Assembly (NCBI GenBank): GCA_017509715.1 | Contig: JAFWOU010000001.1 | Coordinates: forward strand, 62,001 to 126,000 | Origin: Paludibacteraceae bacterium | GTDB lineage: Bacteria > Bacteroidota > Bacteroidia > Bacteroidales > Paludibacteraceae | DNA length: 64,000 nt | Direction: 5' to 3' | Shown: piece by piece, positions 34-57,900 of the stretch | Numbering within the stretch: the stretch's first letter is position 1 | Layout: the number at the start of each line of letters is the position of its first letter | The notes under the pieces: model-generated | What the model was told of the DNA's origin: nothing | What the model saw: only the letters and a program-made list of their open reading frames with translations | The model's database searches: none | Position numbers and translations under genes: made by a program

Positions 34-75
34 GGGTTACGGGTTACGGGTTACAGGTTATAGGTTATAGGTTAT
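34..75 (+). repeat. Six tandem heptamers, family RGGTTAY
   Basis: Three copies of GGGTTAC are followed by three copies of AGGTTAT, and a decayed seventh unit runs into the ATG of the HIT gene at 80. Together they fill the whole gap between the upstream stop (31-33) and the HIT start. The same family forms an eight-unit array at 32571-32626. Confidence 0.95.
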
Positions 76-79
76 AGTT

Positions 80-493
80 ATGACAATATTTACCAAGATA
101 ATCAAGGGCGAGATTCCCAGCTACAAGGTAGCCGAGGACGATCGCTACTACGCCTTCCTGGACATCAATCCGCTGCAGAAGGGACACACGCTGGTGATCC
201 CCAAACTGCCGGAGCCGGAAGCCGACTACATCTTCGACCTGGACGATGAGTTGCTGGCCGGCATGATGGTGTTCGCAAAAAAAGTAGCCCGCGGCCTGAA
301 AGAGGCCACAGGCTGCAAGCGTGTGGGTGTTGCCGTACTGGGCATGGAGGTGAATCACGTGCATATCCATCTTGTGCCGATGAATTCGGAGAAAGATATG
401 CTTTTCACCAATCCCAAGCTGACGCTCGAGAGCGACGAGATGGCCGAGATAGCCAACTCAATCGCCGTAGCCGTAGAATCACTTGACGCGTAG
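80..493 (+). CDS. HIT family nucleotide-binding hydrolase
   Basis: The 137-residue protein is a complete histidine triad protein of the Hint/protein kinase C inhibitor-like class. These cytosolic enzymes hydrolyse nucleoside phosphoramidates or dinucleotides. The triad H93-V-H95-I-H97 lies in VNHVHIHLVP, and by family knowledge the middle histidine (95) is the nucleophile. The N-terminal stretch MTIFTKIIKGEIPSY and the later GHTLVIPK segment are also typical. The ATG is the only sensible start and sits at the end of a heptamer repeat array that replaces a normal leader. The 3' end overlaps the convergent DUF2147 gene by 15 bp. Physiological substrate is not indicated. Confidence 0.93.
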   Translation: MTIFTKIIKGEIPSYKVAEDDRYYAFLDINPLQKGHTLVIPKLPEPEADYIFDLDDELLAGMMVFAKKVARGLKEATGCKRVGVAVLGMEVNHVHIHLVPMNSEKDMLFTNPKLTLESDEMAEIANSIAVAVESLDA

Positions 494-910
494 CCAGGTC
501 TGGCTGCGCCCAAGTATTCCGGCGCGATCTAAGGAACCACGCAGCACCAGCTTACCATTCTTTAGGTATATTTTACCATAGTAGAATTTACCACTCTCAG
601 GATCAAGGAGTTTGCCACCGCGCAATTCTCCTTTTTCTTCATGCATACCGCGGATAAAGACCAGCCCCTCCAGCTTCTTGCCATGGTCGGCTCCCTTGCA
701 CTCGGTGCAGGTCATGTTGGGATCGCCCATGAGCAGGCGGTCGATCTTGCCGTAGTAGAGGCCATCCGAACCGCGATAGATAAGCACGACGGAGTAGCTA
801 TTGCCGGTGCGGTCGTCCACGGTCTTCCATCGACCGAGAATCTCACTCACCTGCGCCGACGCCGACAGCGTCAGGCAGATCATCAACACACAAAAAATCG
901 TTCGTTTCAT
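479..910 (-). CDS. DUF2147 family secreted protein
   Basis: The 143-residue product starts MKRTIFCVLMICLTLSASAQ, a clear signal peptide with probable cleavage after AQ, so the protein is periplasmic or exported. The mature part begins ILGRWKTVDDRTGN and carries the DUF2147 pattern (a GRWKT-type start, GKIDRLL, then a TECKGADHGKKLEG segment with two cysteines), expected to form a small beta-barrel. Its function is unknown. I chose this methionine over an upstream in-frame one because it gives the signal peptide and lies 23 nt downstream of a good promoter. It is divergent from rdgB and overlaps the HIT gene tail to tail. Confidence 0.85.
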   Translation of the reverse strand: MKRTIFCVLMICLTLSASAQVSEILGRWKTVDDRTGNSYSVVLIYRGSDGLYYGKIDRLLMGDPNMTCTECKGADHGKKLEGLVFIRGMHEEKGELRGGKLLDPESGKFYYGKIYLKNGKLVLRGSLDRAGILGRSQTWLRVK

Positions 911-981: not shown

Positions 982-985
982 CAGC

Positions 986-1582
986 ATGAAATTGGTTTTT
1001 GCAACAAATAACGCCCACAAATTGGACGAAGTGCGCAGGATTTTGCCCCAGGAGGTGGAAGTGCTCAGCCTGGAGCAGGTAGGTTTTCTGCACGACATCG
1101 ACGAGACCGGTACTACCCTGGCCGAGAACAGCCGGATCAAGGCCGAAGCTGTCGCTAAGTTTTTGGTGGAAAGTGGAAAGTGGAAGGAGGAAGGACCGGA
1201 TGGGGTCTTTGCCGACGACACCGGGCTGGAGATCGAGGCGCTGGGTGGTAAGCCGGGCGTATATACCGCTCGCTGGGCCGGAGAACCCGCTGCCAACCGC
1301 CGGAAAGCACTACAGGAACTGGCCGACAAACCGAATCGCGCCGCGCAGTTCCGCACCGTCGTAACGCTGATCGACCGTACCGGCACCCGCCAGGTGGATG
1401 GCATCGTACGCGGCCGGATAGCTACCGAAGAACGCGGCGACGGAGGATTCGGGTACGACCCGGTATTCATTCCGGAGGGGTATGACCGCACCTTTGCCGA
1501 ACTGCCGGCGGAAATCAAGAATACGATCAGTCACCGCGCTCGCGCCATGAGCGAACTCAAAAAACTACTGCAACTCTCGTGA
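986..1582 (+). CDS. rdgB: XTP/dITP pyrophosphatase (RdgB/HAM1)
   Basis: This 198-residue cytosolic enzyme hydrolyses non-canonical purine triphosphates (ITP, XTP, dITP) to monophosphates and so keeps them out of DNA and RNA. The N-terminus KLVFATNNAHKLDEVRRIL is the substrate-binding start of the family, and FADDTGLEIEALGG (residues 75-88) carries the catalytic and metal-binding aspartates. SHRARAM near the C-terminus is also conserved. The start was set at 986 because conserved sequence begins there, although the frame is open upstream. Residues 61-70 are encoded by four tandem GTGGAAA-like heptamers, a low-complexity insertion just before the catalytic motif. The stop overlaps the GTG start of the next gene. 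Confidence 0.95.
   Translation: MKLVFATNNAHKLDEVRRILPQEVEVLSLEQVGFLHDIDETGTTLAENSRIKAEAVAKFLVESGKWKEEGPDGVFADDTGLEIEALGGKPGVYTARWAGEPAANRRKALQELADKPNRAAQFRTVVTLIDRTGTRQVDGIVRGRIATEERGDGGFGYDPVFIPEGYDRTFAELPAEIKNTISHRARAMSELKKLLQLS
1166..1193 (+). repeat. Four tandem heptamers (GTGGAAA family) inside rdgB
   Basis: The units are GTGGAAA, GTGGAAA, GTGGAAG and GAGGAAG. They encode the polar run VESGKWKEEG between a conserved helix and the ADDTGLE catalytic motif, where RdgB proteins differ in length. Confidence 0.85.
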
Positions 1583-9553: not shown

Positions 9554-9565
9554 ACGTATGTTGGA

Positions 9566-15359: not shown

Positions 15360-16880
15360 TTAGGCCTTTATGAGCCCTTTTTCTGCCGCCAGTTGCATCA
15401 AATAGGCCTTGGCGGGCTCGTACTCATTGGGGATCACACCGTCTAATATAGCGTCCTTTATGGCCGCTTTGAGTTCGCCCACGGTAGAGCAGGGCTCCAG
15501 GCCCAACAGTTGCATAATCTCCTCGCCCTTCACAGGCGGCTGGAAATTGCGGATACGGTCGCGTTCCTCGAGTTCCACCATCTTCTCTCTTACAAGCTGA
15601 TAATTCCGATGGAATCGGGCCACTTTCTCTTCGTTGCGGCTCGTGATATCCGCATCGCAGAGCAACATCAGGTCCTCGATATCATCGCCCGCTTCGAAGA
15701 GCAGACGGCGTACGGCCGAGTCGGTCACGGTGTCCTCTATGAGGTGGATTGGCCGCATATGCAGGTCCACCATCTTCTGGACATATTGCATCTTCTCATT
15801 GAGGGGCAACTTCATCGTGCGGAAGATCTTGGGGATCATCTTGCTACCGATATAGTTATGGTTTCGGAACGTCCATCCCGCCTGCGGGTCCCAGGCCTTG
15901 GAGCGCGGTTTGCCGATATCGTGCAAGAGCGCTGCCCAACGCAGCCAGAGTTCATGGTCTGAAGGCTGAATGCTGACGGCCGATGGCTGTCGCAACGCGA
16001 CATTATCCACCACCCGTAGCGTATGCAGGAATACGTCCTTATGTCCCCGACCGGACTTTACCTCCACGCCTTTCAATGCCGCCAGTTCGGGAAAGATGAG
16101 GGGCAGCAGGCCCGTCTTGTCGAGCAATAGCCAGCCCTCGGAGGGACGACGGCTCAGCATGATCTTATGCAGCTCCTCGTTGATGCGTTCCTTGGTGATG
16201 ATCTTGATGCGTTCTTTGTTTCGCACGATGGCATCAAAGGTCTCGCCATCCAGGTTGAAACCCAGTTGCGTAGCAAAGCGGATGGCCCGCATCATGCGCA
16301 GCGGGTCGTCCGAGTAGGTGATGTCCGGATCCAGGGGCGTACGGATGATGCAACGCTCCAGATCGCCCATTCCGTCGAATGGGTCTACGAGTTCGCCGTA
16401 TTCCTTGTCGCCTACCACCTTTCGCCCTTCGCCATTATTCAGACATATGGCCATGGCGTTGATGGTAAAGTCGCGGCGATTCTGGTCCTCCTGGAGCGTA
16501 CCATCCTCCACAATGGGGTTTCGGCTATCGCGGGTATAACTCTCCCGGCGTGCACCGACAAACTCCAGCTCCAGGTCTTTCTTCTTGACTTGTGCTGTTC
16601 CGTAAGTCTTGAATACCGACAGGTGTGCGCCCTTGCCCATGCGTTTCGCCACCGCTTCCGCCAGCAGAATACCAATACCAGAACGACCGCCTTCTGAATG
16701 CTGATGGCTGACGGCTGACGGCCCCTTCGCCACCACTACATCAATATCCGTGCTCGGTCGGTGGAGGATCAGGTCGCGCACCCAGCCGCCTATCACGTAG
16801 CACTCCAGCCCCAGACGGTCGGCTTCCTCGCCTATCATCCGGAGAATAGGATCCTGTATTTTCTCGCTTGTGATACGCAT
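15360..16880 (-). CDS. cca: CCA-adding tRNA nucleotidyltransferase with HD domain
   Basis: This enzyme builds or repairs the 3' CCA of tRNAs. The 506-residue protein has the class II nucleotidyltransferase head (VIGGWVRDLILHRPSTDIDVV with the catalytic D-x-D), RRDFTINAMA, the RNA-binding RMMRAIRFATQLGF segment and an HD domain (LLHDIGKP). Two low-complexity insertions are present. One sits just after the D-x-D strand (GPSAVSHQHSEGGRSG) and the other just before the HD motif (RQPSAVSIQPSDHE). Both come from four tandem CTGAYGG-type heptamers and read in frame. The rest looks complete, so the gene is probably active. It lies 3 bp downstream of the flavodoxin gene. Confidence 0.95.
   Translation of the reverse strand: MRITSEKIQDPILRMIGEEADRLGLECYVIGGWVRDLILHRPSTDIDVVVAKGPSAVSHQHSEGGRSGIGILLAEAVAKRMGKGAHLSVFKTYGTAQVKKKDLELEFVGARRESYTRDSRNPIVEDGTLQEDQNRRDFTINAMAICLNNGEGRKVVGDKEYGELVDPFDGMGDLERCIIRTPLDPDITYSDDPLRMMRAIRFATQLGFNLDGETFDAIVRNKERIKIITKERINEELHKIMLSRRPSEGWLLLDKTGLLPLIFPELAALKGVEVKSGRGHKDVFLHTLRVVDNVALRQPSAVSIQPSDHELWLRWAALLHDIGKPRSKAWDPQAGWTFRNHNYIGSKMIPKIFRTMKLPLNEKMQYVQKMVDLHMRPIHLIEDTVTDSAVRRLLFEAGDDIEDLMLLCDADITSRNEEKVARFHRNYQLVREKMVELEERDRIRNFQPPVKGEEIMQLLGLEPCSTVGELKAAIKDAILDGVIPNEYEPAKAYLMQLAAEKGLIKA
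15959..15986 (+). repeat. Four tandem heptamers (CTGAYGG family) inside cca, HD side
   Basis: Units on the plus strand are CTGAAGG, CTGAATG, CTGACGG and CCGATGG, with a partial fifth (CTGTCGC). They encode an insertion immediately upstream of the HD-domain motif. The same family occurs at 16695-16722 in the same gene. Confidence 0.85.
16695..16722 (+). repeat. Four tandem heptamers (CTGAYGG family) inside cca, catalytic side
   Basis: Units on the plus strand are CTGAATG, CTGATGG, CTGACGG and CTGACGG. They encode an insertion right after the catalytic D-x-D strand of the nucleotidyltransferase domain. Confidence 0.87.
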
Positions 16881-17393: not shown

Positions 17394-17418
17394 AAATGAT
17401 TATATTCCAATATTGCTG

Positions 17419-17450
17419 CAAAATTACTACTTTTTTGGAATATATGCAAG
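17419..17450 (-). promoter_or_regulatory. Bacteroidetes-type promoter for the flavodoxin-cca unit
   Basis: On the minus strand a -33 CTTGCATATA (first four bases at 17447-17450) is followed after 20 bp by -7 TAATTTTG (17419-17426), 25 nt before the flavodoxin ATG. Confidence 0.75.
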
Positions 17451-17489: not shown

Positions 17490-17636
17490 GTCGCTATGTC
17501 GCTGTTTAGACGGTGTGGTTTTGGAACTTTGAGACTTTGATGAGATTTTGTAAACAAATGATATTCTGCAAGTTATTACCAATAGTCTCAATAATCTCAA
17601 TAATCTCATGCAAAAAATAAAGAGCGACATAGCGAC
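17490..17636. repeat. Inverted repeat, 14-bp arms
   Basis: GTCGCTATGTCGCT at 17490-17503 is exactly complementary to AGCGACATAGCGAC at 17623-17636. The interior holds further imperfect complementary stretches: GAGACTTTGATGAGA on the left against TCTCAATAATCTCA on the right. A transcript could form a long hairpin. Confidence 0.75.
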
Positions 17637-17691
17637 AAAGCGACACGTAAAAAAGAAAACCGTCAAACCGTCAAACCGTCACGAAAAAATC

Positions 17692-17719
17692 GATTAGGGA
17701 TTATCGATTGTGGATTGTC
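17692..17719 (+). repeat. Four degenerate heptamers (GATTRKS family)
   Basis: The units are GATTAGG, GATTATC, GATTGTG and GATTGTC. Copy number and unit length match the arrays found inside genes, but this one is intergenic. Confidence 0.8.
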
Positions 17720-17744
17720 GAAGGGGCTATGGTGAGCCTGTGGT

Positions 17745-17788
17745 AAGGCTAATAACCAACGAATATCTAACGAATAACTAACGTTAGA
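17745..17788 (+). repeat. Four degenerate 11-mers
   Basis: The units are AAGGCTAATAA, CCAACGAATAT, CTAACGAATAA and CTAACGTTAGA, without spacers. The first and last are the most diverged. Confidence 0.65.
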
Positions 17789-17924
17789 CAGGGCTTAGGT
17801 ATGCTATATAGACGACGCTGACTCGTCGTCAAGGGGACGTACTGAAGAGTGTGGGTAAGGAACTTAATCTTAAGAATCGGACATTTTTGAGGGGAAAAAT
17901 AGGCATTTATAAACCATGGGAAAA

Positions 17925-17968
17925 CCATGACTTACCCATGACTTACCCATGACTTACCCATGACTTGC
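17925..17968 (+). repeat. Four tandem 11-mers CCATGACTTAC
   Basis: Three perfect copies of CCATGACTTAC are followed by one copy with a single change (CCATGACTTGC). The array lies between the two copies of the 20-bp direct repeat AATCTTAAGAATCGGACATT. Confidence 0.92.
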
Positions 17969-18174
17969 CCCTTAGTGAGCAAAATCTTAAGAATCGGACA
18001 TTATGCATGGGGCGTTTCATTACCGGATCGAATCCGTTGAGAAATCCCAACGGGAAAAGCCTCGATGATGATTTGTAGACCTGCTAATCACAAAAACTCT
18101 TCTTGATAAGTCCTATATTTTTTATGATACTCTCCATAGGTTTCAATTTTTCTGGAAAGTGTAAATATTAAATA

Positions 18175-29297: not shown

Positions 29298-29341
29298 CAA
29301 TGGATGCTCAATGGATGCTGAATGGGTGCTCAATGGATGCT
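29298..29341 (+). repeat. Four tandem 11-mers CAATGGATGCT
   Basis: Two perfect copies, one diverged copy (GAATGGGTGCT) and a final perfect copy lie between the macroglobulin-like gene and the YcxB-like gene. This is the same four-copy, 11-bp organisation as at 17925-17968, but an unrelated sequence. Confidence 0.92.
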
Positions 29342-29383
29342 CATAATGACGCAAGCCTATCATTATGCCAAGAGAACACCGAC

Positions 29384-32570: not shown

Positions 32571-32626
32571 GGGTTATAGGTTACGGGTTATAGGTTACGG
32601 GTTATGGGTTATGGGTTATGGGTTAC
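32571..32626 (+). repeat. Eight tandem heptamers, family RGGTTAY
   Basis: The units alternate GGGTTAT/AGGTTAC, then run GGGTTAT three times and GGGTTAC. They fill the gap between the yjjI stop (32567-32569) and the activase gene and supply its ATG at 32618. This is the same family as at 34-75. Confidence 0.95.
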
Positions 32627-43944: not shown

Positions 43945-44896
43945 TCGGCGAATGGCGAATGGCGAATGGCGAATGCTCATAGTGGCGTTATGTACGATGG
44001 CGCTAGGGCTGATGGCTTGTGAGCCGCTGCCTACGTATGAGGTGAATGATGTGCATATCACGTCTCAGACGCGTATCATCTCATCCGGCTTTATTGAGCA
44101 GGTCTTCACGACCGACCGCGATGCGTATTACCTGATTGGTATCGAACAGGTACAAGAGGGGTATGACCCCACCAAGCCGGAACTGCAGAAGCCCTTTATG
44201 ACCCTGGAACTGGACTCGGCGCATCAGGAGTACCTGGATTGGCGTCGTGAGTTGCTGCGCCAGGGTGAGTTTACGATTGCTTCGTTTGCGAGTCATAGTC
44301 TGCAATATGGCGAGACCGACTATTTCTTCACGGGACTGAAACGGAATACGGACTACTGGATATATGCCTTTGTGGTGGATCCGGAGAAGATGGTGCCGAA
44401 GGGCAAACTGAATCTGGTGAAAGTAACAACTACAGAGAATAGCACCGTGGATGTGCACTTTGAGTACCGCATCATGGACGACTGGGACTATATCTATCCT
44501 ATGGATTCTACGGGCGCCATGGTCACCCATTATCCGTACGTCATGGAGACGGTGGATAGTCTGGATATCGTAGCCTCGGGAGCCTACTGTCCGCAGTACT
44601 ATTTCAGCGACCGGCAAGCCTACTGGACCGCCAATCCGGATTCGGCTCATCTGCTATATGGCGTCTATACCCGTCAGAATATCGAGGTGGACGATGCGAA
44701 CGAGCAGGAATTGTTCGAAGAATTAGACTACAACTGCTTTAGCATCGGCCACACCTACTACACCTTCATCTGCGGATTCGACGACGGCTACTTCCACCCC
44801 ACGATCTATAAGTTCCGTTGGGATGGAGGCAAGATGAAATACTATTTCAACGGTAAAGACGGAACGAATCTGTTCGACTATATCGATCGCTGGTAG
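43937..44896 (+). CDS. Uncharacterised lipoprotein with repeat-coded N-terminus
   Basis: The frame encodes 319 residues. The lipobox LGLMAC lies near residue 28, after MLIVALCTMALG, so the mature lipoprotein begins at that Cys. Residues 4-12 (RRMANGEWR) are coded by four GGCGAAT heptamers, which put an unusual charged extension before the signal peptide. An in-frame ATG at 43973, immediately after the array, would give a standard lipoprotein signal and may be the real start. The mature part is acidic and strand-rich with no family that I recognise (YFFTGLKRNTDYWIYAFV resembles a fibronectin-type repeat strand). It overlaps the hydrolase gene by 8 bp. Confidence 0.65.
   Translation: MNNRRMANGEWRMLIVALCTMALGLMACEPLPTYEVNDVHITSQTRIISSGFIEQVFTTDRDAYYLIGIEQVQEGYDPTKPELQKPFMTLELDSAHQEYLDWRRELLRQGEFTIASFASHSLQYGETDYFFTGLKRNTDYWIYAFVVDPEKMVPKGKLNLVKVTTTENSTVDVHFEYRIMDDWDYIYPMDSTGAMVTHYPYVMETVDSLDIVASGAYCPQYYFSDRQAYWTANPDSAHLLYGVYTRQNIEVDDANEQELFEELDYNCFSIGHTYYTFICGFDDGYFHPTIYKFRWDGGKMKYYFNGKDGTNLFDYIDRW
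43947..43974 (+). repeat. Four perfect tandem heptamers GGCGAAT at a gene start
   Basis: Four identical GGCGAAT units lie between two in-frame ATG codons (43937 and 43973) of the lipoprotein gene. A gain or loss of one unit would frameshift translation from the first ATG but not from the second. Confidence 0.96.
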
Positions 44897-46794: not shown

Positions 46795-47973
46795 ATGGCA
46801 AGCAATTTCATAGACTACGTTAAGATCTACTGCCGCTCCGGAAAGGGAGGTGCGGGCAGCATGCATTTCCATCGTGCCAAATACCTGCCGAAAGGTGGTC
46901 CGGACGGTGGCGATGGCGGTCGTGGAGGTAGTATCATCCTGCACGGCAACCGCAATCTATGGACGTTGCTTCACCTGAAGTATCAAAAGCATATCATGGC
47001 CACCGATGGCGGACGTGGCGGCGAGAGTCGTTCGTCGGGCAAGGATGGCGAGGATAGGATCATCGAAGTGCCGTGCGGTACGGTGGCCTATGACGGCGAT
47101 ACGGGCGAGTGGCTATGCGAAGTGAAGGAGCATGATGAGCGCATCGTGTTGCTTCGTGGCGGTAAGGGCGGACTCGGTAACTGGAATTTCCGTACGGCCA
47201 CCAACCAAGCGCCGCGTTATGCCCAGCCGGGCGAGCCTTGTCAGGAGAGGAACGTCATCTTGCAACTGAAAGTGCTGGCCGACGTAGGATTGGTGGGATT
47301 TCCGAATGCGGGCAAATCGACCCTGCTGAGCGTAGTGTCGGCGGCCAAACCCGAGATAGCCGACTATCCCTTCACGACGCTGACACCCCAACTGGGCATC
47401 GTGAAATATCGTGACGAGCGCTCGTTCTGCATGGCCGATATACCGGGTATCATCGAGGGAGCGAGTGAAGGCAAGGGACTTGGACTCCGGTTCTTGCGTC
47501 ATATTGAAAGGAATGCCGTACTGCTATTCCTGGTGCCGGCTGCTACGCCGGACATCGTGGCCGAGTATAACATATTGCTCTCCGAATTGGAGAAATATAA
47601 TCCGGAGCTGCTGACCAAGGCACGCATCCTGGCGGTTTCCAAATGCGACCTGCCTCCGTATAACGAGGAGGGCGAGATCTTGCCGATTCCATCCGCAAAA
47701 GAGATCTCGGAGCAGATCGGTATCCCTGTGGTACATATCGCATCCTACACGGGCATGGGATTGGACGAACTGAAGGACATGATCTGGACCGAACTCAACA
47801 AGGAGCAGAATCAGGTCATCGAGATCTCGCATGCGCCGATTGAGATCAACCAGATAGAGCGCGACGAACCGATGGCACAGGACGAAGAGGACGAGGAGGG
47901 TACGATCTACCTCAACGAAGTGGAGGAAGAGTGGGACCTCTCGAAATACAAGGGTATCGGATGGGATGAGTAA
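46795..47973 (+). CDS. obgE: GTPase ObgE/CgtA
   Basis: Obg is an essential GTPase of 50S ribosome assembly and the stringent response. The 392-residue protein has the glycine-rich Obg fold at the N-terminus (YCRSGKGGAGSMHFHRAKYLP, GGDGGRGG) and the G domain with FPNAGKSTLLS (G1), DIPGIIEGASEGKGLG (G3) and SKCDLP (G4). An acidic C-terminal tail is rich in Asp and Glu (QDEEDEEGTIYLNEVEEEWD). A heptamer array begins at the base after its stop codon. Confidence 0.97.
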   Translation: MASNFIDYVKIYCRSGKGGAGSMHFHRAKYLPKGGPDGGDGGRGGSIILHGNRNLWTLLHLKYQKHIMATDGGRGGESRSSGKDGEDRIIEVPCGTVAYDGDTGEWLCEVKEHDERIVLLRGGKGGLGNWNFRTATNQAPRYAQPGEPCQERNVILQLKVLADVGLVGFPNAGKSTLLSVVSAAKPEIADYPFTTLTPQLGIVKYRDERSFCMADIPGIIEGASEGKGLGLRFLRHIERNAVLLFLVPAATPDIVAEYNILLSELEKYNPELLTKARILAVSKCDLPPYNEEGEILPIPSAKEISEQIGIPVVHIASYTGMGLDELKDMIWTELNKEQNQVIEISHAPIEINQIERDEPMAQDEEDEEGTIYLNEVEEEWDLSKYKGIGWDE

Positions 47974-48001
47974 AGGCGAAAGGCTAAGGGCGAATGGCGA
48001 A
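47974..48001 (+). repeat. Four degenerate heptamers between obgE and the ClC gene
   Basis: The units AGGCGAA, AGGCTAA, GGGCGAA and TGGCGAA start immediately after the obgE stop and contain the ATG used by the ClC channel gene at 47994. The array is close in sequence to the GGCGAAT array at 43947-43974. Confidence 0.88.
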
Positions 48002-49802
48002 TGGTTTTTACGATAGGATGATTGAGTGGCGGGAACGCCATATTGGCGGCAAGCAGTTTGTGCTGCTGCTATCGTTCTTCGTAGGCTGTTTCTCGGCTTG
48101 TGCAGCGGTGCTGCTCAAGTCGTTTATCCACCTGATTCAGCATTTCATCGAGACGCAACTGATTGCAGATGATCGCACGTGGTGGTACCTGATCACGCCG
48201 ATGATCGGTATTACCCTGGCGGCGCTGTTTGTGCGGTATGTGGTACGGGATGATATCTCGCATGGTATCACCAAGATACTATATGCCATCTCGCAGCGCA
48301 AATCAATCATCAAGGCGCATAATATGTGGTCGTCGGTAGTGGGATCGGGACTGACGATCGGTTTTGGTGGATCGGTAGGAGCCGAGGCACCTATCGTACT
48401 GACGGGTGCGGCGATTGGTAGCAACCTAGCCAAAGCGTTCCGGCTCGACCAGAAGACGATGATGCTCATGATCGGTTGTGGTGCAGCCGGTGCGATAGGT
48501 GGTATCTTCAAGGCACCTATTGCCGGCCTGGTCTTCACGCTGGAGGTGCTGATGATGGACATCACAATGACCTCCGTGGCGCCGCTGCTGATCTCGTCGG
48601 TGACGGCCACGGCTATCTCGTATATTGCTACGGGTACCGACCCGATGTTCCCGCTGGATCAGTATGATGCATTTAATGTCAGTCGTATACCATGGTATTT
48701 GTTGCTGGGCGTAGTTTGCGGCTTTGCAAGCCTGTACTTCACGCGCGGCATGAACCGCTTGGAGCAACTCATGAAGCGGCATGTGCGCAGTATCGGCATG
48801 AAGATATTGGTAGGCGGTCTGACGTTGAGCATCTTGATCTTCCTCTTCCCACCGCTATATGGCGAGGGCTACGACGTGATCACCCAGTTGATCAACGGCA
48901 ACAGCATGGGGGCTATCGAGCACAGTCCGATCGTTGGTTGGATGGGGTACGATCCGAGTTATAAGTTGACGACGCTCAACGTACAGCTGATTATCATTGC
49001 CTATTTTACGGCCATTATCTTGCTCAAAATATTTGCGAGCGTGGCCACGAACGGCGGCGGTGGCGTAGGTGGTATCTTTGCACCCTCGCTGTTTATGGGT
49101 GCGTTGGTAGGTTTTGTGACGGCACGCGTGCTAAACCTGACGGGTGTATGGGTGCCGGAGACCAATTTCTCGCTGGTAGGTATGGCCGGACTGATGTCGG
49201 GCGTGATGCATGCGCCGCTGACGGGTATCTTCCTCATCGCCGAACTGACGGGCGGCTACCATCTGTTTATGCCGCTGATGATCGTGAGCGTCATCTCGTA
49301 TCTGACCATCATGATTTTTGAGCCCCACTCGCTGTATGCCATGCGTCTGGCGCAGAAGGGTGAACTGCTGACCCACAATAAGGATCGCAACGTGCTGACC
49401 CTGCTCAAGATGGATAATGTGCTGGAGACCGACCTGATCACTATCTTCCCGGAGATGACGCTCGGCGAACTGGTGAAAGTGATCTCGAAGAGCCGCAGAA
49501 ACATCTTCCCCGTGATCGATCATGAGGGGCATCTGAAGGGTGTGTTGCTGCTGGATGAGGTCAGGAATATCATGTTCCAACCGCGTCTGTATAAGCGCTT
49601 TACGGTAGGGCAACTCATGACATCTCCCGCCGCAATCTTGCGGTTTGACATGCAGATGGATAAGGTGATGGAGACCTTTGAAGATACCGGCGCATGGAAC
49701 TTACCCGTAGTGGATCAGGATCGCCGCTATCTGGGTTTTGTATCTAAATCAAAGATTTTTAATTCGTACCGTCACGTACTGGTTCACTTCTCAGAAGAGT
49801 GA
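47994..49802 (+). CDS. ClC-type chloride channel/transporter with CBS domains
   Basis: The 602-residue membrane protein has the ClC fold: GFGGSVGAEAPIVLTGAAIGSN carries the first anion-selectivity loop, GCGAAGAIGGIFKAPIAG the next, and NGGGGVGGIFAPSLFMGA the late loop. The E in GSVGAEAP is the gating/proton glutamate region. A C-terminal cytosolic pair of CBS domains follows (about residues 465-600, LKMDNVLETDLITIFPEM and VGQLMTSPAAILRFDMQMD). The first residues MANGFYDRM derive partly from the heptamer array; an in-frame ATG eight codons on (MIEWRERH) is a possible alternative start. It overlaps the convergent phosphatase gene by 19 bp. Confidence 0.93.
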   Translation: MANGFYDRMIEWRERHIGGKQFVLLLSFFVGCFSACAAVLLKSFIHLIQHFIETQLIADDRTWWYLITPMIGITLAALFVRYVVRDDISHGITKILYAISQRKSIIKAHNMWSSVVGSGLTIGFGGSVGAEAPIVLTGAAIGSNLAKAFRLDQKTMMLMIGCGAAGAIGGIFKAPIAGLVFTLEVLMMDITMTSVAPLLISSVTATAISYIATGTDPMFPLDQYDAFNVSRIPWYLLLGVVCGFASLYFTRGMNRLEQLMKRHVRSIGMKILVGGLTLSILIFLFPPLYGEGYDVITQLINGNSMGAIEHSPIVGWMGYDPSYKLTTLNVQLIIIAYFTAIILLKIFASVATNGGGGVGGIFAPSLFMGALVGFVTARVLNLTGVWVPETNFSLVGMAGLMSGVMHAPLTGIFLIAELTGGYHLFMPLMIVSVISYLTIMIFEPHSLYAMRLAQKGELLTHNKDRNVLTLLKMDNVLETDLITIFPEMTLGELVKVISKSRRNIFPVIDHEGHLKGVLLLDEVRNIMFQPRLYKRFTVGQLMTSPAAILRFDMQMDKVMETFEDTGAWNLPVVDQDRRYLGFVSKSKIFNSYRHVLVHFSEE

Positions 49803-50606: not shown

Positions 50607-50607
50607 G

Positions 50608-50998
50608 TGGAGCTAGCGGGAGTCGAACCCGCGTCCAAACAAGGACCGTATGTGCTTTCTACACGCTTATCTCGGCCTGGATTTTCGTCCGTCGGCAAGA
50701 CCCGAGCCACCAACCGCCGGCTTATCTGCTAAAGTTTCGGCATCGTATCGCAGCCTGCGACACCTATTCTGTGAATTTCTGCGCCGCTCAGTCCATTCAG
50801 CCCACAGACTCGGCTTGGAGCGACGTCCCGTTCAGGCACCTGGTGCCCGAAATAAGCTAATCTACTATACTTCGATTAGGCAGCGAGAGCATAAGCATTG
50901 TTGCCAGTTATAGTTTTGAGACGATATTTACGAGCATTGCCTCATTGCTCGGCGTGCTTACACAGGCGATCTACCTGCTGTCAAAACCAAATAGCCCC
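50608..50998 (-). ncRNA. ssrA: Transfer-messenger RNA (tmRNA, ssrA)
   Basis: The RNA rescues stalled ribosomes. Its 5' end GGGGCTA pairs with TAGCTCC at the 3' end to form the acceptor stem, and the T-arm is CGGGTTCGACTCCCG. The 5' part continues TTTGGTTTTGACAGC, as in other tmRNAs. The tag frame ends GNNAYALAA followed by TAA (near 50879-50908), which matches the YALAA ending of Bacteroidetes tags. The exact resume codon is uncertain; GGC is the likely one. CCA is not encoded. The length of about 391 nt is normal. A promoter at 51041-51072 precedes it, and the 3' end is partly duplicated downstream. Confidence 0.95.
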
Positions 50999-51128: not shown

Positions 51129-54100
51129 ATGAAACATTTTAAGGAATACAAACAGTTGAATCTGGCCGCACTGAGCGAAGAAGTGCTGGCTGAGTGGGAA
51201 AAGGAACATTTGTTTGAGAAGAGCGTAGAGACACGCGAAGGACATCCTGCGTTTTTGTTCTTTGAGGGTCCTCCCTCGGCGAACGGTATGCCGGGTATTC
51301 ACCACGTGATGGCCCGTACGATCAAGGATACGTTCTGCCGCTTCAAGACGATGCAGGGATATCAGGTGCGTCGTAAAGCCGGATGGGACACGCACGGTCT
51401 GCCCGTGGAGCTGGGCGTGGAGAAGATGCTGGGTATCACCAAGGAGGATATCGGCAAGAAGATCTCGGTGGACGAGTACAACGCAGCCTGCCGCAAAGAG
51501 GTGATGAAATACACCGCCGAGTGGACCAAACTGACCAAGCAGATGGGCTACTGGGTGGACCTGAACGATCCGTATATCACGTACGACAACAAGTATATCG
51601 AGACCCTTTGGTACCTACTGAAGGAACTGTATAAGAAGGGCTATCTCTACAAGGGCTATACCATTCAGCCGTATTCGCCGGCTGCCGGAACGGGACTGAG
51701 TTCGCACGAGTTGAACCAGCCGGGATGCTATCGCGACGTAAAGGACCTGACTTGTACCGCCAAGTTCCATCTGAAAGACGGCCGTTACATCATCGCTTGG
51801 ACGACCACGCCGTGGACCTTGCCTTCGAATACGGCCCTTTGCGTGGGTCCGAAGATAGACTATGTAGAGATTGCGCTGGAGAGCGGCGAGCATATCATCC
51901 TGGCCGAAGCACGACTGAGTGCCTATTTCGAGAATGCCGAGATCGTGGCCCGTTACAAGGGTACTGACCTCGTTGGCCTGGAGTACGAACCCCTCTTTCC
52001 GTGGGTGAATCCGGGACCGGGTGCATATCGCGTTATTCCGGGTGACTATGTGACCACGGAAGACGGTACGGGTATTGTACATATCGCGCCGACGTTCGGT
52101 GCGGACGATAAGAAAGTGGGTGACGCTGCCGGCGTGCCGGGACTGTATATGCAGACCAAGGACTTCGGTCCGCGTCCGATGGTGGACTTCACGGGTAAGT
52201 ACTGGAAAATCGAGGACCTGGACGAGGCATGGGTAGCCGCCAACGTCAATACCGAACTGTATGGTAAGTATGCCGGACGCTTCGTGAAGAACGCGTACGA
52301 CCCGACGCTGACGGAGAAGGACGAGAGTCTGGACCTGCACCTCTGTCTGGAAATGAAAGCCGACGGCCGTCTGCTCAAGACTGAGAAGCACGTGCACTCC
52401 TACCCGCATTGCTGGCGTACCGACAAACCCGTCATCTACTACCCGCTCGACTCGTGGTTTATCAAGTCGACGATGGCACGCGACGAGATGATCGCGCTCA
52501 ACAAGACCATCAACTGGCAACCTGAAAGCACAGGTACGGGTCGTTTCGGTCAGTGGCTCAACAACCTCAACGACTGGAACTTAAGCCGCAGCCGTTACTG
52601 GGGTACGCCGCTACCTATCTGGCGCACCGAGGATGGCAAGGAAGAGATCTGTATCGGTTCGATCGCCGAACTCTTTGCTGAGATCGACAAGTCGGTCAAG
52701 GCTGGCTTCATGACCGCGAACCCGTGGCCGAAACACGTGGTGGGCGACTATAGCAAAGAGAACTACGACCCGAGCGTGATTGATCTGCATCGTCCGTATG
52801 TGGATAATATCATTCTGGTTTCGCCGAGCGGAAAACCGATGAAGCGTGAACTGGACCTGATCGACGTATGGTTCGACTCAGGCGCGATGCCGTATGCACA
52901 GAACCACTATCCGTTTGAGAACGCAGACGCTCCGCGTACCGCCGACTTCATCTCGGAGGGTGTGGATCAAACCCGCGGCTGGTTCTTCACGCTGCATGCT
53001 ATCCACACGATGATCGAGGGTCAGGTGGCCTATAAGAACGTCATCTCTACCGGACTGGTACTGGACAAGAACGGCAACAAGATGTCCAAACGTCTGGGCA
53101 ATGCCGTAGATCCGTTTACCGCGCTGGAGAAATACGGTGCAGACGCCGTTCGCTGGTATATGCTGACCAACTCCGCGCCATGGGAGAACCTGAAGTTCGA
53201 TCCGGAAGGTGTCGATGAGGTGCGCCGTAAGTTCTTCGGCACGCTGTATAACACCTACGGCTTCTTCGCCCTCTATGCCAACGTTGACGGCTGGCAACCT
53301 GCGTCTCTCACCGACGGTCAACCGACGGTCAACCGACAGTCAAAGCCAACGTCGAGCCAAGATCGTACCGAGATCGACCGCTGGATTCTCTCCAAACTCA
53401 ACTCGCTCGTAAAGGAGGTGACGGAGGCGTATGAGACGTATGAACCAACCAAAGCCGGTCGTGCTATCTCGGACTTCGTACAGGATGACCTGAGCAACTG
53501 GTACGTGCGTCTGAACCGCAAACGTTTCTGGGGCGGCGAGATGAATGCCGACAAGCAGGCAGCATACGAGACGCTGTACACCTGTCTGAAGACCGTAGCA
53601 CAACTGATGGCGCCGAATGCACCGTTCTATGCGGATCGTCTCTATCGCGACTTGGTAGGTGAGACCGTTCACTTGAGCGAGTGGCCGAAAGCCGACGAAT
53701 CGCTCATCGACCTCAACCTTGAGCGTCAGATGTACCTGGCACAGCAGGCCACCAGTATGATTCTCAGTCTGCGTAAACGCGCCGAGAAGAACGTGCGTCA
53801 ACCGCTGCAAAAGGCGGTCATCCCGACGCCGGATCAGGAGACGACAGACGCGTTGCTGCACGTAGCCGAACTGATCAAGAGCGAGGTGAACGTCAAGGAA
53901 CTGGTCGTTGTACCGGCCGAGCAGAGCGAGATTCGACTGGTCAAGAAGATCAAGCCGAACTTCAAAGTGCTCGGTAAGAAAGTAGGCGCACAGATGAAAG
54001 CTCTTGCTGCCGCCATCAGCGCCATGTCACAAGAAGATATTGAGAAAATGGAGAAAGAGGGAACTTTCAACTTTGAACTTTCAACTTCTCTCAACTCTCA

Positions 54101-54485
54101 ACCCTCAACTCTCAACTATACCCTCATCCCCGAGGACGTGGAGATCATCACAGAAGATATGCCGGGTTGGCTGGTAGCCAACAACGGCATTCTGACCATC
54201 GCGCTGGATATTGAGTTGACCGACGAGTTGGTAGAAGAGGGTCTGGCACGTGAGTTGATCAACCGTATTCAGAACCTCAGAAAGCAGAGCGGACTGGAGA
54301 TCACGGACCGCATCCGCGTGACGATCCAGGATGTAGAGACGATCCACAACGCCGTGCTGCATTGCAATGACTACATCGCATCGCAGGTACTGGCCACCCA
54401 GCTGGAGTTGGCACCGAGTTGCGAGGGCGAGACGATCGATATTGATGGACAGAACATACAAATCAAAATAGAAAAAGCATCATGA
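51129..54485 (+). CDS. ileS: Isoleucyl-tRNA synthetase
   Basis: IleS charges tRNA-Ile. The 1118-residue cytosolic enzyme has the HIGH-type motif in GPPSANGMPGIHHVMAR, the editing-domain segment WTTTPWTLPSNTAL, and the KMSKS-type GNKMSKRLGNAVDP, followed by an anticodon-binding region and a C-terminal domain ending IDGQNIQIKIEK. Two low-complexity tracts interrupt it. Residues near 728-740 come from 11-bp repeats (DGQPTVNRQSKPTS) just before the conserved DRTEIDRWILSKLNS. A 19-residue tract near 978-996 comes from eight heptamers (FELSTSLNSQPSTLN). Both keep the frame and lie at domain borders, so the enzyme should remain functional. The 3' end overlaps the next gene by 4 bp. Confidence 0.96.
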   Translation: MKHFKEYKQLNLAALSEEVLAEWEKEHLFEKSVETREGHPAFLFFEGPPSANGMPGIHHVMARTIKDTFCRFKTMQGYQVRRKAGWDTHGLPVELGVEKMLGITKEDIGKKISVDEYNAACRKEVMKYTAEWTKLTKQMGYWVDLNDPYITYDNKYIETLWYLLKELYKKGYLYKGYTIQPYSPAAGTGLSSHELNQPGCYRDVKDLTCTAKFHLKDGRYIIAWTTTPWTLPSNTALCVGPKIDYVEIALESGEHIILAEARLSAYFENAEIVARYKGTDLVGLEYEPLFPWVNPGPGAYRVIPGDYVTTEDGTGIVHIAPTFGADDKKVGDAAGVPGLYMQTKDFGPRPMVDFTGKYWKIEDLDEAWVAANVNTELYGKYAGRFVKNAYDPTLTEKDESLDLHLCLEMKADGRLLKTEKHVHSYPHCWRTDKPVIYYPLDSWFIKSTMARDEMIALNKTINWQPESTGTGRFGQWLNNLNDWNLSRSRYWGTPLPIWRTEDGKEEICIGSIAELFAEIDKSVKAGFMTANPWPKHVVGDYSKENYDPSVIDLHRPYVDNIILVSPSGKPMKRELDLIDVWFDSGAMPYAQNHYPFENADAPRTADFISEGVDQTRGWFFTLHAIHTMIEGQVAYKNVISTGLVLDKNGNKMSKRLGNAVDPFTALEKYGADAVRWYMLTNSAPWENLKFDPEGVDEVRRKFFGTLYNTYGFFALYANVDGWQPASLTDGQPTVNRQSKPTSSQDRTEIDRWILSKLNSLVKEVTEAYETYEPTKAGRAISDFVQDDLSNWYVRLNRKRFWGGEMNADKQAAYETLYTCLKTVAQLMAPNAPFYADRLYRDLVGETVHLSEWPKADESLIDLNLERQMYLAQQATSMILSLRKRAEKNVRQPLQKAVIPTPDQETTDALLHVAELIKSEVNVKELVVVPAEQSEIRLVKKIKPNFKVLGKKVGAQMKALAAAISAMSQEDIEKMEKEGTFNFELSTSLNSQPSTLNYTLIPEDVEIITEDMPGWLVANNGILTIALDIELTDELVEEGLARELINRIQNLRKQSGLEITDRIRVTIQDVETIHNAVLHCNDYIASQVLATQLELAPSCEGETIDIDGQNIQIKIEKAS
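53311..53343 (+). repeat. Three tandem 11-mers CCGACGGTCAA inside ileS
   Basis: Two perfect copies and one with a single change (CCGACAGTCAA). Two more diverged 11-bp units (AGCCAACGTCG, AGCCAAGATCG) follow. The tract encodes a Gln/Thr/Asn-rich linker before the anticodon-binding domain. Confidence 0.9.
54061..54117 (+). repeat. Two blocks of four heptamers inside ileS
   Basis: Block one is GAACTTT, CAACTTT, GAACTTT, CAACTTC. After one base, block two is CTCAACT, CTCAACC, CTCAACT, CTCAACT. The total of 57 bp equals 19 codons, so the reading frame is kept. Confidence 0.92.
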
Positions 54486-54925
54486 AAGCATGCACATTTC
54501 GTAAGTCGGCACTCCGACTCCTATTCTTTGCGCTGGCAGGTGCGGCGCTGACCGGTTGTATCCCCACCACGCAGCCCACGTTCTACCTGCACGATCTGCA
54601 GGGACTCTGGCAAGAGAATAACACCCAGCACTACGTACGCTTCACCACCGAGCAGAGCGACGAGGCGGGCTACCTCTACGGCCGCGAGTGGGACGAAGGC
54701 GAGGATGTCTTCGAAGAAGACCTGGTGCCCCACGGCAACGGATGGTTTAAGTACCTGTTCGAAACCGATAATCAGAAGTTGACGGAGATCCACTTGATGG
54801 ACAACGGCGGTGCGGAGATACCCAAGATATACGTGGTGACCAAGCTGAATAGCACCACGCTGGAATACTACGAGAAGGATCATAAGGCCATCACGTACCG
54901 TTTTCAGAAGATGGTAGATAAATAA
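54482..54925 (+). CDS. Small lipoprotein, lipocalin-like
   Basis: The 147-residue product has a lipoprotein signal (RLLFFALAGAALTGC, Cys26) and a mature domain with LQGLWQENNTQHYVRFTTEQS at its start and a series of beta strands ending TLEYYEKDHKAITYRFQKM. This resembles lipocalin-like domains common in Bacteroidales lipoproteins, but there is no firm family assignment. It overlaps the ileS stop (ATGA) and precedes the AsmA-like gene by 6 bp. Confidence 0.7.
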   Translation: MKACTFRKSALRLLFFALAGAALTGCIPTTQPTFYLHDLQGLWQENNTQHYVRFTTEQSDEAGYLYGREWDEGEDVFEEDLVPHGNGWFKYLFETDNQKLTEIHLMDNGGAEIPKIYVVTKLNSTTLEYYEKDHKAITYRFQKMVDK

Positions 54926-54931
54926 ACGGCT

Positions 54932-57900
54932 ATGAAACTGTTTTGGAAGATACTCAAGATCTGCGGCATCACGTTGGCAAGCCTGATCGTGGTCACGTTG
55001 CTGGCTGTCGGCATCGCAATATGGATCGTGTTCACGCCGGACAAGGTGACGCCTATCGCCCGCGATTTTGCGGACGAGTATGTCACGGCTCCGCACCAGT
55101 TGGGCGAGGTGGATCTGACTTTCTTCTCCACCTTCCCCTACTTCGGCGTGCGCGTCGAGGGGCTGGAAATCGTGAATCCCGTTGAGGGCGCACAGAGCGA
55201 CACGCTGCTGGCGGCCAAGCAGGTGGTAGCCACCATCGACCTGATGGCTTTTCTCAATCAGAAGAAGCTGGACATCGGTACGCTGACGCTTCGCGACGTA
55301 CAGGCCAATATCTTCATCGATTCGCTGGGGCAAGCCAACTGGAACGTGTTTAAGTTGCCGCCCGACACCGCTGCGGAAGACACCTCGGCTTTTGAGTTAC
55401 CCTTCGACGAGATACGCGTCGACAACGCCATGATGGCCAGCAACCGACTGAGTTTCGTGGACCGCAAAGACAGCATCGAGGCCTCAATCCAGGGTTTTGC
55501 CTTTGATGCGGCCATCGACGGTTGGGACGACATACGGGTGCAGCTGAAGACCCTGGCTGTGAACGCTCGCGTCAAGGAGACCACCTATGCCACCGATGCC
55601 CAGATCAGCATCGATGCACCAGCAGCTGTTCATCTGGATAGCATGTATTTCGCCTTGCGCGATGCATCCGTAGCGGTCAATGACCTCAAGCTTGGACTGG
55701 ACGGCTGGATCGCCCTGAAGCCCGACATACGGATGGACATGAAAGCTACGGCCGAGAAATGGGATATCGAGCAACTGCTGGCGCTGGTGCCGAAGCAGTT
55801 TACCCGGGCGCTACGCGACATCGACGCCAAGGGATTGCTCACGCTGGAAGCTTCGGCCAAGGGTGTGTATAACGACTCGACAATGCCCGTGGCAGATGCC
55901 CACGTGCTGCTGGAAGATGCAACGGCACAATACAAGCCAATCCCCTTAGTTGCCGAGAATGTGCAAGCGGATATCACAGCGCACCTCGATTTGAACGACT
56001 CGCTGGCTTCCACGGCCTCGCTGAGCCTAGAGGCCGATACGAAGAAGAGTCACGTAAAGCTGACGGGTAGCGGCAAAGAACTGCTGGCCGATGCAGAGAT
56101 TGATGCGCAAGCCGAACTGGATGCCAACCTGCCGGACTTTGCATACTTCCTGCCGAAAGATATGAAGTTGGCCGGCAAAACGAAAGGCCAGGTGAGCGTC
56201 AAAGCACGCCTGTCGGAACTCCGGAAAATGCAACTCCGTCAGAGCAAGATAGATGGCGACTTCGACCTCAAGAAACTCGATGTACGCATGAGCGACCTGC
56301 AGGCCCAGTTGCCGGAAGGCAAACTCAAGGTGCGTCTGCCGAATCGCAAACCCTCGGCGCCGACCTACCGATGGCTGGATGCCAATTTGCAGATCAGCAA
56401 TGTGGACGTGCGGATGGGCGACATGCGCGTCAAACTGACGCAACCTACGCTGCGTGCCGAGACCAACGACCTCATGCATGGCAAGCAGATGGATGTCAAT
56501 GCCTCGCTGGCTGCGGCACTGTTGACGGCCAAGTCGGACAGTATGGACGTGACGGGCAAGCAGCCCAAGTTGGCGGCTAAGATGCAGTATGACACCCGCT
56601 CCGGTGCGCTGCCGACGATAGACGCTACGCTCAATATGACCGGACTGGATGCGCAGTACACCGATATCGACGCCGTGCTGAAGCAGACCAATCTGGTAGC
56701 CCACATGCATAGCGATCCGCAGCAGAAAGAGATGATGCACCTCAAGGCCGACCTGCAGACGCCGGACCTGAGCGTCAAGAAGGGGGATAGCATCCAGGCA
56801 CGGCTGACCGCTCCTAAACTGGCAGCCACGATGCAGTATAACAGCCAGGATACCACGACCTTGCCGACCATCGATGCCACGCTCGACTTCGCCAATATGG
56901 ACGGTACGTTCTCCGATATCACCACTTCGCTCAAGCAGGCTAAGTTGACAGCCGGCGTTCGCAGCGAGAAGAACAAGAAAGACGAACCGCAGATCAAGGC
57001 CTCGCTGGCCTCCGCGGCTCTCAAAGTCATGATGGGCGAGACGGTGAAAGCCAAGACACAAACCATCTCGATGGATGCCAAGGCACATTATAACCCCAAG
57101 TACAAGAAGAACCTGCTGCTGCAGTGGAATCCCCATCTGCGCGTCAACCTGCAGCAAGGCGAAGCCGAACTGGCGATGCTGACCATGCCGATTATCATAC
57201 CGTCGATCGACTTCTCCTACACCAACAAGATCTTCAAGATCAACCGCTCGCAGGTGCACCTGGGCAGTTCAGACTTCACCCTCTCGGGCGACGTGAACGA
57301 TATCGGTCCGTGGCTGCGCGGCGAAGGCATATTGAAGGGTGAGTTGAATTTTGAGAGCGACTATACCGACGTCAACGAGCTGATGGCACTCTTCTCGGCC
57401 GATGAGGGAAGCGAAGAGCAGACAGAGGAGTCGAAAGCTAAAAGTCAAAAGTCGAAAGACACACCGCACGAAGGCCCGTTCCTGGTGCCGACCGATGTGG
57501 ATCTGGCGCTCAATACCCGTATTGGTACCGCCGATGTATTCACCGAGCAGATATACGACGTAGGCGGCAAGGTATACGTGCGCAACGGCATTCTGGCGCT
57601 GGAGGAGATGGGCTTTGTATGTAATGCCGCCCGTCTGCAACTGACGGCCATGTACCGCACGCCTCGCCGCAACCACCTCTACCTGGGTCTGGATTACCAC
57701 ATGCTGGACGTAGATATCGACACGTTGATTGACATGATACCTACCGTCAAGGAGATAGTACCGATGCTCAATTCGTTCAAGGGCAATGCGGAGTTCCACC
57801 TGGCAGCCGAGACCTACCTCAACCAGAATTACGAACCCAAGATGTCCACCCTGCGCGGTGCGGCCTCGCTGTTTGCCAAGGACCTGGTAGTCATGGACGG

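What the first reader, a model, noticed from the sequence alone, without database searches (positions are those of the whole stretch)
34..57457. Dispersed short tandem arrays that keep to four units of 7 bp or 11 bp
At least fourteen arrays of unrelated sequence share one format. Exactly four 7-bp units (28 bp) occur at 1166, 15959, 16695, 17692, 43947, 47974, 57430 and twice at 54061-54117. Four 11-bp units (44 bp) occur at 17745, 17925 and 29298. Longer 7-bp arrays lie at 34-75 (six) and 32571-32626 (eight). Units are often degenerate, unlike simple slippage products, and arrays occur between genes, over start codons and inside conserved genes. Heptamer repeats (STRR) are known in heterocystous cyanobacteria, but I know of no described system with this copy-number rule in Bacteroidales. 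A dedicated generating or diversifying process, or a protein that binds four-unit arrays, is possible.
Basis: seen in the sequence. Interest (0 to 1): 0.82.

Follow-up and report, generated by a model that had tools for sequence, protein, structure and literature searches.

The report
Swappable four-unit heptamer repeat arrays
This uncultured gut bacterium and its relatives carry hundreds of short repeat arrays, typically about 30 letters long and some inside housekeeping genes, and a close relative often has an array at the same place but with a quite different repeat, likely because arrays are copied over one another by a process not yet identified.

Summary
The observation largely holds. 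In 364 kb of this Paludibacteraceae-type genome 54 of 128 tandem arrays have 7-bp units, then 8 (14), 11 (10), 9 (6); periods 10, 12, 13 give none. Heptamer copy number peaks at four and drops at five. In the largest family 40 of 59 gathered arrays have exactly four units. Ten genomes of other Bacteroidales families show 2 heptamer arrays in 352 kb. Four-unit arrays recur en bloc in unrelated surroundings with shared ends and sit in frame in housekeeping genes, including loops of the CCA-adding enzyme that hold other arrays or nothing in other species. Against the closest relative (flanks 84-97% identical) 24 of 52 covered arrays keep their family, 17 face a different array at the same place, 11 neither. 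Best reading: arrays are copied over resident arrays, trimmed by slippage and held near 30 bp by selection on frame and length; independent insertion into few permissive spots is a serious rival, since array edges agree only roughly. No enzyme is identified. Heptamer repeats and in-frame mini-elements are known separately; I found no description of this combination.

The parts
34..77 (+). 7-bp array, GGGTTAC/GGTTATA family, about 6 units; 14 bp (two units) longer than in G046
1166..1195 (+). 7-bp array (GTGGAAA), about four units, inside a Ham1-family gene (641-1582); G046 has another heptamer array there
15360..16880 (-). CCA-adding enzyme / poly(A) polymerase-family gene with three filled variable loops
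15959..15989 (-). degenerate 7-bp array, GCCNTCA family on the coding strand, loop B of the CCA gene
16401..16439 (-). degenerate GGCGAAG-like heptamer insert, loop D of the CCA gene (residues 148-160)
16695..16722 (-). 7-bp array, GCCGTCA family, four units, loop A of the CCA gene; empty in G002
17580..17970 (.). intergenic cluster of arrays with 9-, 8-, 8-, 7-, 11- and 11-bp units
29298..29343 (+). 11-bp array, 4.2 units; 44 bp (four units) longer in G046
32571..32626 (+). 7-bp array, eight units, over the start of a radical-SAM gene (32618); 21 bp longer than in G046
43947..43975 (+). perfect GGCGAAT x4 at a gene junction; no array there in G046
47972..48004 (+). GGCGAAA/GGCTAAG/GGCGAAT x4 at the obg stop codon, before a ClC-channel gene; empty, other arrays or other sequence in relatives
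53310..53343 (+). 11-bp array, three units, inside a class I tRNA synthetase gene (51129-54485, isoleucyl type by recall); kept in G046
54062..54117 (+). heptamer array (AACTTTC / CTCTCAA) inside the same synthetase gene; no array there in G046
57429..57458 (+). degenerate 7-bp array (AGTCAAA, 73% matches) inside ORF 54932-58279; below my threshold

Best explanation
Short tandem arrays of mostly 7-bp units, typically about four units or 30 bp, lie at many places in this genome, and at many of these places a close relative also has an array but of a different repeat unit; the change is likely a copy-in replacement, in which an array elsewhere in the genome serves as template and overwrites the resident array. 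Shown: period and copy-number peaks, en bloc recurrence with shared ends, several unit families per genome, empty sites in relatives, different content at the same place, partly mixed arrays, and length changes by whole units. Inferred: that the change is templated (template switching or repair synthesis at a break inside an array, using letters that families share), that slippage then trims arrays, and that purifying selection keeps frame and length (about 30-33 bp) in protein loops and at gene junctions. No enzyme is identified.
For: Periods: 54 of 128 arrays are 7 bp; copy excess peaks at four. GTCRAAA: 130 overlapping three-unit windows in the whole genome, 0 of the reversed control; 40 of 59 gathered arrays have four units; of these 40, A at -1 in 39, G at +1 in 39, C at +2 in 30, T at -2 in 23, A or T at -4 in 38, unit order G-A-G-G in 17. 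Different array at the same place in G046: 17 of 52 covered arrays (a set enriched for this family); 6 of 21 in the untargeted sample and 4 of 16 in reverse, with mean flank identity 91-92% in both the changed and the unchanged class. Flank similarity runs up to the array in both genomes at L231:537 (31 v 28 bp between flanks), L236:1033 (36 v 36), L021:13681 (27 v 27), L188:1500 (36 v 40). At L206:1947 own, G046 and G002 have GTCGAAA, TCAGCCG and CAGCCAA arrays. Mixed arrays: L019:12810, L246:1041. CCA loops filled by many families. Whole-unit length changes of 14, 16, 18, 21, 32, 44 and 72 bp.
Against: No change of family has been seen within one species; aligned DNA of own and G046 is about 91% identical, so independent insertion near the same spot is not excluded. 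Called array edges agree within 6 bp on both sides in only 7 of the 17 changed rows, within 3 bp in 1; the caller drops degenerate end units, so this is a lower bound, but it does not show exact replacement. Of the 17 rows one is the same family inverted (L187) and two (L236:359, 411) are one site. Shared ends (TA...GC) suit insertion of a discrete element better than template switching. Same-unit pairs within a genome were not significantly enriched over 80 relatives' loci (5 of 165; 284 of 2000 shuffles reach this). In 6 of 52 cases the other genome has hairpins or unrelated sequence, not an array.
Confidence: 0.42

Rival explanations
1. Independent insertion: 30-33 bp elements bombard the genome, only a limited number of spots (surface loops, stop-start junctions) tolerate them, and these are filled and emptied independently in each species.
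For: Empty sites: W47972, W16700 and L223 against G002; own empty against a 24-bp in-frame array of G046 at W51778; 9 of 22 parsed obg-ClC junctions are 7-14 bp. Shared element ends. Array edges at changed sites agree only roughly.
Against: Occupied places more often face a different array (17 of 52) than a shorter array-free or empty site (5 of 52) in G046; with many possible spots in a genome, two independent hits so close together should be rare unless the spots are few; mixed arrays exist.
Confidence: 0.34
2. Ordinary replication slippage (long simple sequence repeats) plus mutation and homogenisation in place; heptamers dominate because of a polymerase property, as proposed for other bacteria.
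For: Heptamers are the commonest class of such repeats in most genomes (Mrazek 2007, as summarised in the introduction of PMC4679880). Whole-unit length changes are seen. 11-bp units are nearly all unique to one array (10 families in 10 arrays of own, 44 in 45 of relatives), so these may arise locally; 9-bp arrays, and 8-bp arrays in relatives, fall off from two copies as slippage predicts.
Against: For heptamers four copies exceed two above chance; unit order and ends recur in unrelated surroundings; units differ in most letters while flanks differ by about 9%.
Confidence: 0.13
3. The arrays are binding sites on DNA or mRNA for a four-subunit regulator and are kept for that function.
For: Four-unit rule; positions right after stop and just before start codons, as in the TAACTGA repeats; of 7 arrays between two tandem genes, 6 lie in sense.
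Against: Many unrelated unit families, families changed at one place, many arrays inside coding sequence. The sense bias in genes fits stop codons: the two arrays well inside antisense ORFs of over 200 aa (L228, L244) have only GTCGAAA among their clean units, whose reverse strand has no TGA.
Confidence: 0.07
4. Hairpin- or RNA-based mobile elements moved by a Y1 (RAYT-type) transposase or a reverse transcriptase.
For: GC-rich hairpins (CCGGAGTGCCTCCGGAGTCG, GGTGCCTCCGGGCACTCCGA) abut about a dozen of the 59 GTCRAAA arrays (counted by eye); G046 has a 52-bp array-plus-hairpin insert absent in own (L016:18818). Own has two weak Y1_Tnp hits.
Against: RVT_1: none in own, and in 4 of 15 others of the genus searched. 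Y1_Tnp: none in the array-bearing G001, G002 and G015, which are 82, 90 and 78% complete.
Confidence: 0.04

Closest known systems
STRR heptamers of heterocystous cyanobacteria (features recalled; paper listings only)
   Same: Dispersed short tandem arrays with 7-bp units, several unit types per genome.
   Different: Different phylum; here a four-unit peak, many arrays inside coding genes, and different unit families at the same place in close relatives.
TAACTGA direct repeats of Beggiatoaceae, cyanobacteria and five Bacteroidetes (PMC4679880; abstract, introduction, section 15 and passages read)
   Same: [quoted passage not shown] mobility considered there, no mechanism evident.
   Different: One unit sequence, mostly intergenic; here dozens of units, in-frame insertion in housekeeping genes, and changing content. 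TAACTGA is not among own's 29 families.
Long simple sequence repeats with heptamer excess (Mrazek 2007, known only through PMC4679880 introduction and PMC4692102 passages)
   Same: Seven is the favoured unit length.
   Different: Slippage does not predict a four-copy peak, en bloc dispersal or changes of family.
Rickettsia palindromic elements (PMC10969869, passages)
   Same: Small elements repeatedly inserted in frame in unrelated genes.
   Different: About 150 bp and palindromic; here about 30 bp, direct repeats.
BrickBuilt MITE of Porphyromonas gingivalis (PMC4596501, outline and abstract)
   Same: Bacteroidales; a dispersed element built of tandem units.
   Different: 23-bp units with leader, tail and inverted-repeat ends, always intergenic, 19 copies in one strain.
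GGGAATC and GGGGA(T/C)T heptamers of Xanthomonas and Nostoc (PMC4692102, passages)
   Same: Heptamer arrays that vary in length and sequence between close species.
   Different: That study treats G-rich units in intergenic regions; here many units of other composition, also in genes.

Membership tests
STRR heptamers | tandem 7-bp units dispersed in the genome | tested here: met
   54 heptamer arrays in 364 kb
STRR heptamers | heterocystous cyanobacterial host (recalled) | tested here: not met
   relatives are Paludibacteraceae/Bacteroidales
STRR heptamers | outside coding genes (recalled) | tested here: not met
   arrays inside CCA-enzyme, tRNA-synthetase and Ham1-family genes; 45 of 59 GTCRAAA arrays overlap an ORF of 80 aa or more (mechanical ORFs, some doubtful)
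TAACTGA repeats | unit TAACTGA | tested here: not met
   absent from the 29 heptamer families of own; for relatives only the 40 commonest of 73 were listed
Slippage microsatellites (LSSR) | copy number falls steadily from two copies up | tested here: not met
   heptamers; 9 bp does fall, and 8 bp in relatives
Slippage microsatellites (LSSR) | length changes by whole units | tested here: met
   14, 16, 18, 21, 32, 44, 72 bp
Slippage microsatellites (LSSR) | same unit at orthologous sites of close relatives | tested here: inconclusive
   same family in 24 of 52 and 11 of 21, different array in 17 and 6
REP/RAYT | Y1 transposase in array-bearing genomes | tested here: not met
   none in G001, G002 and G015 (incomplete genomes); two weak hits in own
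REP/RAYT | hairpin as the repeated unit | tested here: not met
   arrays are direct repeats; hairpins only sometimes adjacent
Rickettsia palindromic elements | in-frame insertion into genes | tested here: met
Rickettsia palindromic elements | palindrome of about 150 bp | tested here: not met
   about 30 bp, direct repeats
BrickBuilt MITE | 23-bp units with inverted-repeat ends | tested here: not met
   7-bp units, ends TA...GC; no inverted repeat evident in the flank tallies (no dedicated search)
Retroelement (RT-borne) | reverse transcriptase in the genome | tested here: not met
   no RVT_1 match in own

The most novel reading that the evidence does not exclude
The genome runs an array-exchange system: a large set of ~30-bp slots, many of them in loops of housekeeping proteins and at stop-start junctions, whose content is overwritten from a small, lineage-specific pool of four-unit arrays faster than the surrounding DNA diverges. 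That would be a genome-wide, homology-poor cassette exchange of a kind I know of in no bacterium.
Probability: 0.3. Interest if true: 0.88.

Novelty: new variant of a known kind. Interest (0 to 1): 0.7.

Why it matters
Heptamer repeats in bacteria are known, with polymerase slippage as a proposed explanation. Here slippage alone fails for the heptamers: arrays have a preferred copy number, travel en bloc, enter housekeeping genes in frame and differ in kind at the same place between close relatives. A genus with 178 held genomes, a pair about 91% identical and loci with no arrays make the birth and spread of short tandem repeats directly testable. If exchange is real, it changes loop peptides in many proteins without breaking reading frames.

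Tried and rejected
Slippage alone: rejected for the heptamers by copy number and en bloc order. Y1 transposase and reverse transcriptase as drivers: searched, not supported. RNA families: only tmRNA and a TPP riboswitch at the gathering cut-off. Sense-strand bias as a sign of an RNA mechanism: rejected as the main reading, because antisense GTCAAAA carries TGA, with a stricter open-frame rule, leaves 16 sense, 1 antisense (L233, which does carry GTCAAAA and lies at a gene junction), 2 ambiguous, 38 without such a frame and 2 at edges, so it decides little. Codon phase of the first G in those 16: 11, 3 and 2, not pursued. Same-unit clustering within genomes over 80 loci: not significant. A flank analysis of the GGGTTAY family failed through an off-by-one in my pattern and was not repeated. 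The AlphaFold model of the CCA enzyme is poor (mean pLDDT 64.7); insert A falls between a strand and a helix with pLDDT under 50, weak support only. G193 and G194, taken as a 96% pair from one locus, are about 73-86% identical in another 20 kb, so they were dropped as a strain comparison. Limits of the counts: the 99 rows are not 99 species, since several of the 18 search loci are the same genomes as named loci, and parsing failed for 8, 1, 18 and 1 rows at sites A, C, D and B, 22 of 30 loci were parsed, and in three of them (L276, L278, L289) the far end was not found and 120 bp were taken (L289 looks empty); arrays without both flanks in the sampled DNA (135, 81 and 141) are not in the counts; one search listed only the first places, so the 59 arrays are not the whole family. 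The class 'different array' was assigned by script (fewer than three shared 9-mers and an array present).
Full report
What is there. The window is 64 kb of a 2.38-Mb Bacteroidales genome (G000). Its nearest named relatives are uncultured Paludibacteraceae or Bacteroidales, including 'Candidatus Colicola', mostly from herbivore guts by their record titles. A lag-match scan finds heptamer, 8-, 9- and 11-bp arrays in the window and none at periods 3-6, 10, 12 or 13; shuffles give practically none.

How general it is. Eighty loci of relatives (1.48 Mb) give 414 arrays: 131 of period 7, 45 of 11, 40 of 8, 21 of 9, but also 9 of 10 and 17 of 12. Twenty stretches of ten genomes from other families of the order (352 kb) give 2 of period 7. 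Load varies within the genus: 1.51 heptamer arrays per 10 kb in own, 1.80 in G046, 0.48 in G002; L112, L115 and L117 (21 kb each, two of them Candidatus Colicola) have none of the main periods.

The four-unit rule. Counting heptamer arrays by copy number against one shuffled control, own gives 2:20 (11), 3:26 (2), 4:32 (0), 5:5 (0); relatives 2:67 (39), 3:76 (0), 4:79 (0), 5:21 (0). A slippage product should fall from two copies upward; this rises to four and then drops. 9-bp arrays, and 8-bp arrays in relatives, do fall from two, and 11-bp arrays in relatives are flat from two to four. Within the commonest family of own, GTCRAAA, 59 arrays gathered with their flanks have 3:4, 4:40, 5:8, 6:3, 7:2, 8:2 units (found by three clean units, so shorter ones could not appear). 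A second family has four units in 17 of 27 (two units in 6) and a third in 4 of 4.

Arrays are copied whole. The 40 four-unit GTCRAAA arrays share more than a unit: base -1 is A in 39, +1 is G in 39, +2 is C in 30, -2 is T in 23, -4 is A or T in 38 and -3 in 30, and the order of the two unit variants is GTCGAAA-GTCAAAA-GTCGAAA-GTCGAAA in 17; further out no letter exceeds 19 of 40. The C at +2 and T at -2 are not continuations of the repeat. This looks like copies of one ~31-33 bp sequence in unrelated surroundings. The family is patchy in the genus: a 17-base probe matches 86 times in own, 152 times in G149, and in 103 of 178 genomes at all, with at most 3 matches of the reversed control in a genome.

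Where they sit. Two arrays (and a third, degenerate one) fill loops of the CCA-adding enzyme gene (PolyA_pol and HD domains). In 99 rows from the genus (some genomes occur twice) four loops of this gene are either short or filled, and the fill differs: GTCAGCC, GTCGAAA, GGTTACG, AATCACC, AATGGTA and GGTGAAA heptamers, GAATGAAC octamers, 15-bp repeats, GC-rich hairpins or sequence without visible repeats. Some species have the same family in several loops (L067, L082, L088, L100). Other hosts are a class I tRNA synthetase gene and a Ham1-family gene. At the junction between obg and a ClC-channel gene, 22 of 30 loci could be parsed: 9 have 7-14 bp, 6 have arrays of four families, 7 have other sequence. 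In own the array begins within the stop codon; G002 lacks it.

Different content at the same place. Genome G046 is the closest held relative (93-94% identical at the obg locus; mean 90.6% over the aligned DNA). Of 52 own arrays with both flanks in the sampled G046 DNA, 24 have the same family, 17 another array, 6 other sequence of similar or greater length, 4 something shorter without an array, 1 nothing. This set is enriched for GTCRAAA arrays, because I fetched those on purpose; in the untargeted sample the counts are 11, 6, 2, 2 and 0 of 21, and in reverse 8, 4, 1, 0 and 3 of 16. Mean flank identity is 91-92% in both classes. Of the 17 rows one is the same family inverted (L187) and two are one site (L236:359, 411). 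At L231:537 the flanks are alike up to the array and 31 v 28 bp between them are GTCGAAA-type in one genome and TCAGCCA-type in the other; L236:1033 has 36 v 36 bp, L021:13681 27 v 27 bp, L188:1500 36 v 40 bp. L206:1947 has GTCGAAA, TCAGCCG and CAGCCAA arrays in own, G046 and G002. Measured by the array caller, edges agree within 6 bp on both sides in 7 of 17 rows and within 3 bp in 1; the caller drops degenerate end units, but exact replacement is not shown. Mixed cases exist (L019:12810, L246:1041). With about 9% divergence, mutation in place can hardly rewrite a heptamer in all four units.

Insertions and length changes. Gains are also seen: a 24-bp in-frame array in G046 within the synthetase gene at W51778, 30 bp at L019:7833, 63 bp at L011:19751, and a 52-bp array-plus-hairpin at L016:18818. 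Length changes in whole units (14, 16, 18, 21, 32, 44, 72 bp) show that slippage-like changes work on the arrays as well.

How it may work (inferred). Families share short stretches of letters, so a break or stalled polymerase inside an array could be continued on another array and return. Repeated rounds would give mixed arrays, change of family, and spread of one family through a genome, as seen. Slippage then trims, and selection against frame shifts and stops keeps about 30-33 bp in genes: the two arrays well inside antisense ORFs of over 200 aa consist of GTCGAAA units, which have no stop on the other strand. What this does not explain well is the shared ends; a discrete element with its own insertion enzyme explains those better. 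RVT_1 is absent from own and Y1_Tnp is weak in own and absent from three array-bearing relatives.

Known kinds. Heptamer excess in bacterial genomes is known (PMC4679880 introduction; PMC4692102 passages), as are TAACTGA arrays at gene starts and in-frame mini-elements (Rickettsia palindromic elements, PMC10969869 passages). I found no description of this combination, and no paper with both Paludibacteraceae and tandem repeats, in the held open-access papers (searches; listings only for nearly all hits); subscription papers are mostly not held.

Noticed in passing
L160:4677-4737, 9485-9562, 10849-10927, 12528-12590: Other dispersed repeats of about 40-80 bp with many matches, mostly 80-96% identical, in four related genomes.
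   Followed up: no
L192, L213, L221, L222, L224, L227, L234, L242, L247: GC-rich hairpin repeats (CCGGAGTGCCTCCGGAGTCG, GGTGCCTCCGGGCACTCCGA and variants) directly beside GTCRAAA arrays; GC-rich inverted repeats also fill loops of the CCA gene in L077, L081, L085 and L095.
   Followed up: partly
window 63576-63664 (-): TPP riboswitch aptamer (Rfam RF00059, 56.5 bits, gathering 54.3).
   Followed up: no
window 50607-50998 (-): tmRNA with tag GNNAYALAA.
   Followed up: no
L064 and L127 (CCA region): 96% identical around the CCA gene, although another 20 kb of the two genomes is about 73-82% identical in its long matches: likely gene transfer between species, or a binning error.
   Followed up: no
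window 17393-18175: One intergenic stretch of about 780 bp with six or more arrays of different unit length, the densest spot of the window.
   Followed up: no
L100 (14.9 kb), CCA gene: Loops B, C and D are all filled by the GTCGAAA family in this one genome.
   Followed up: partly
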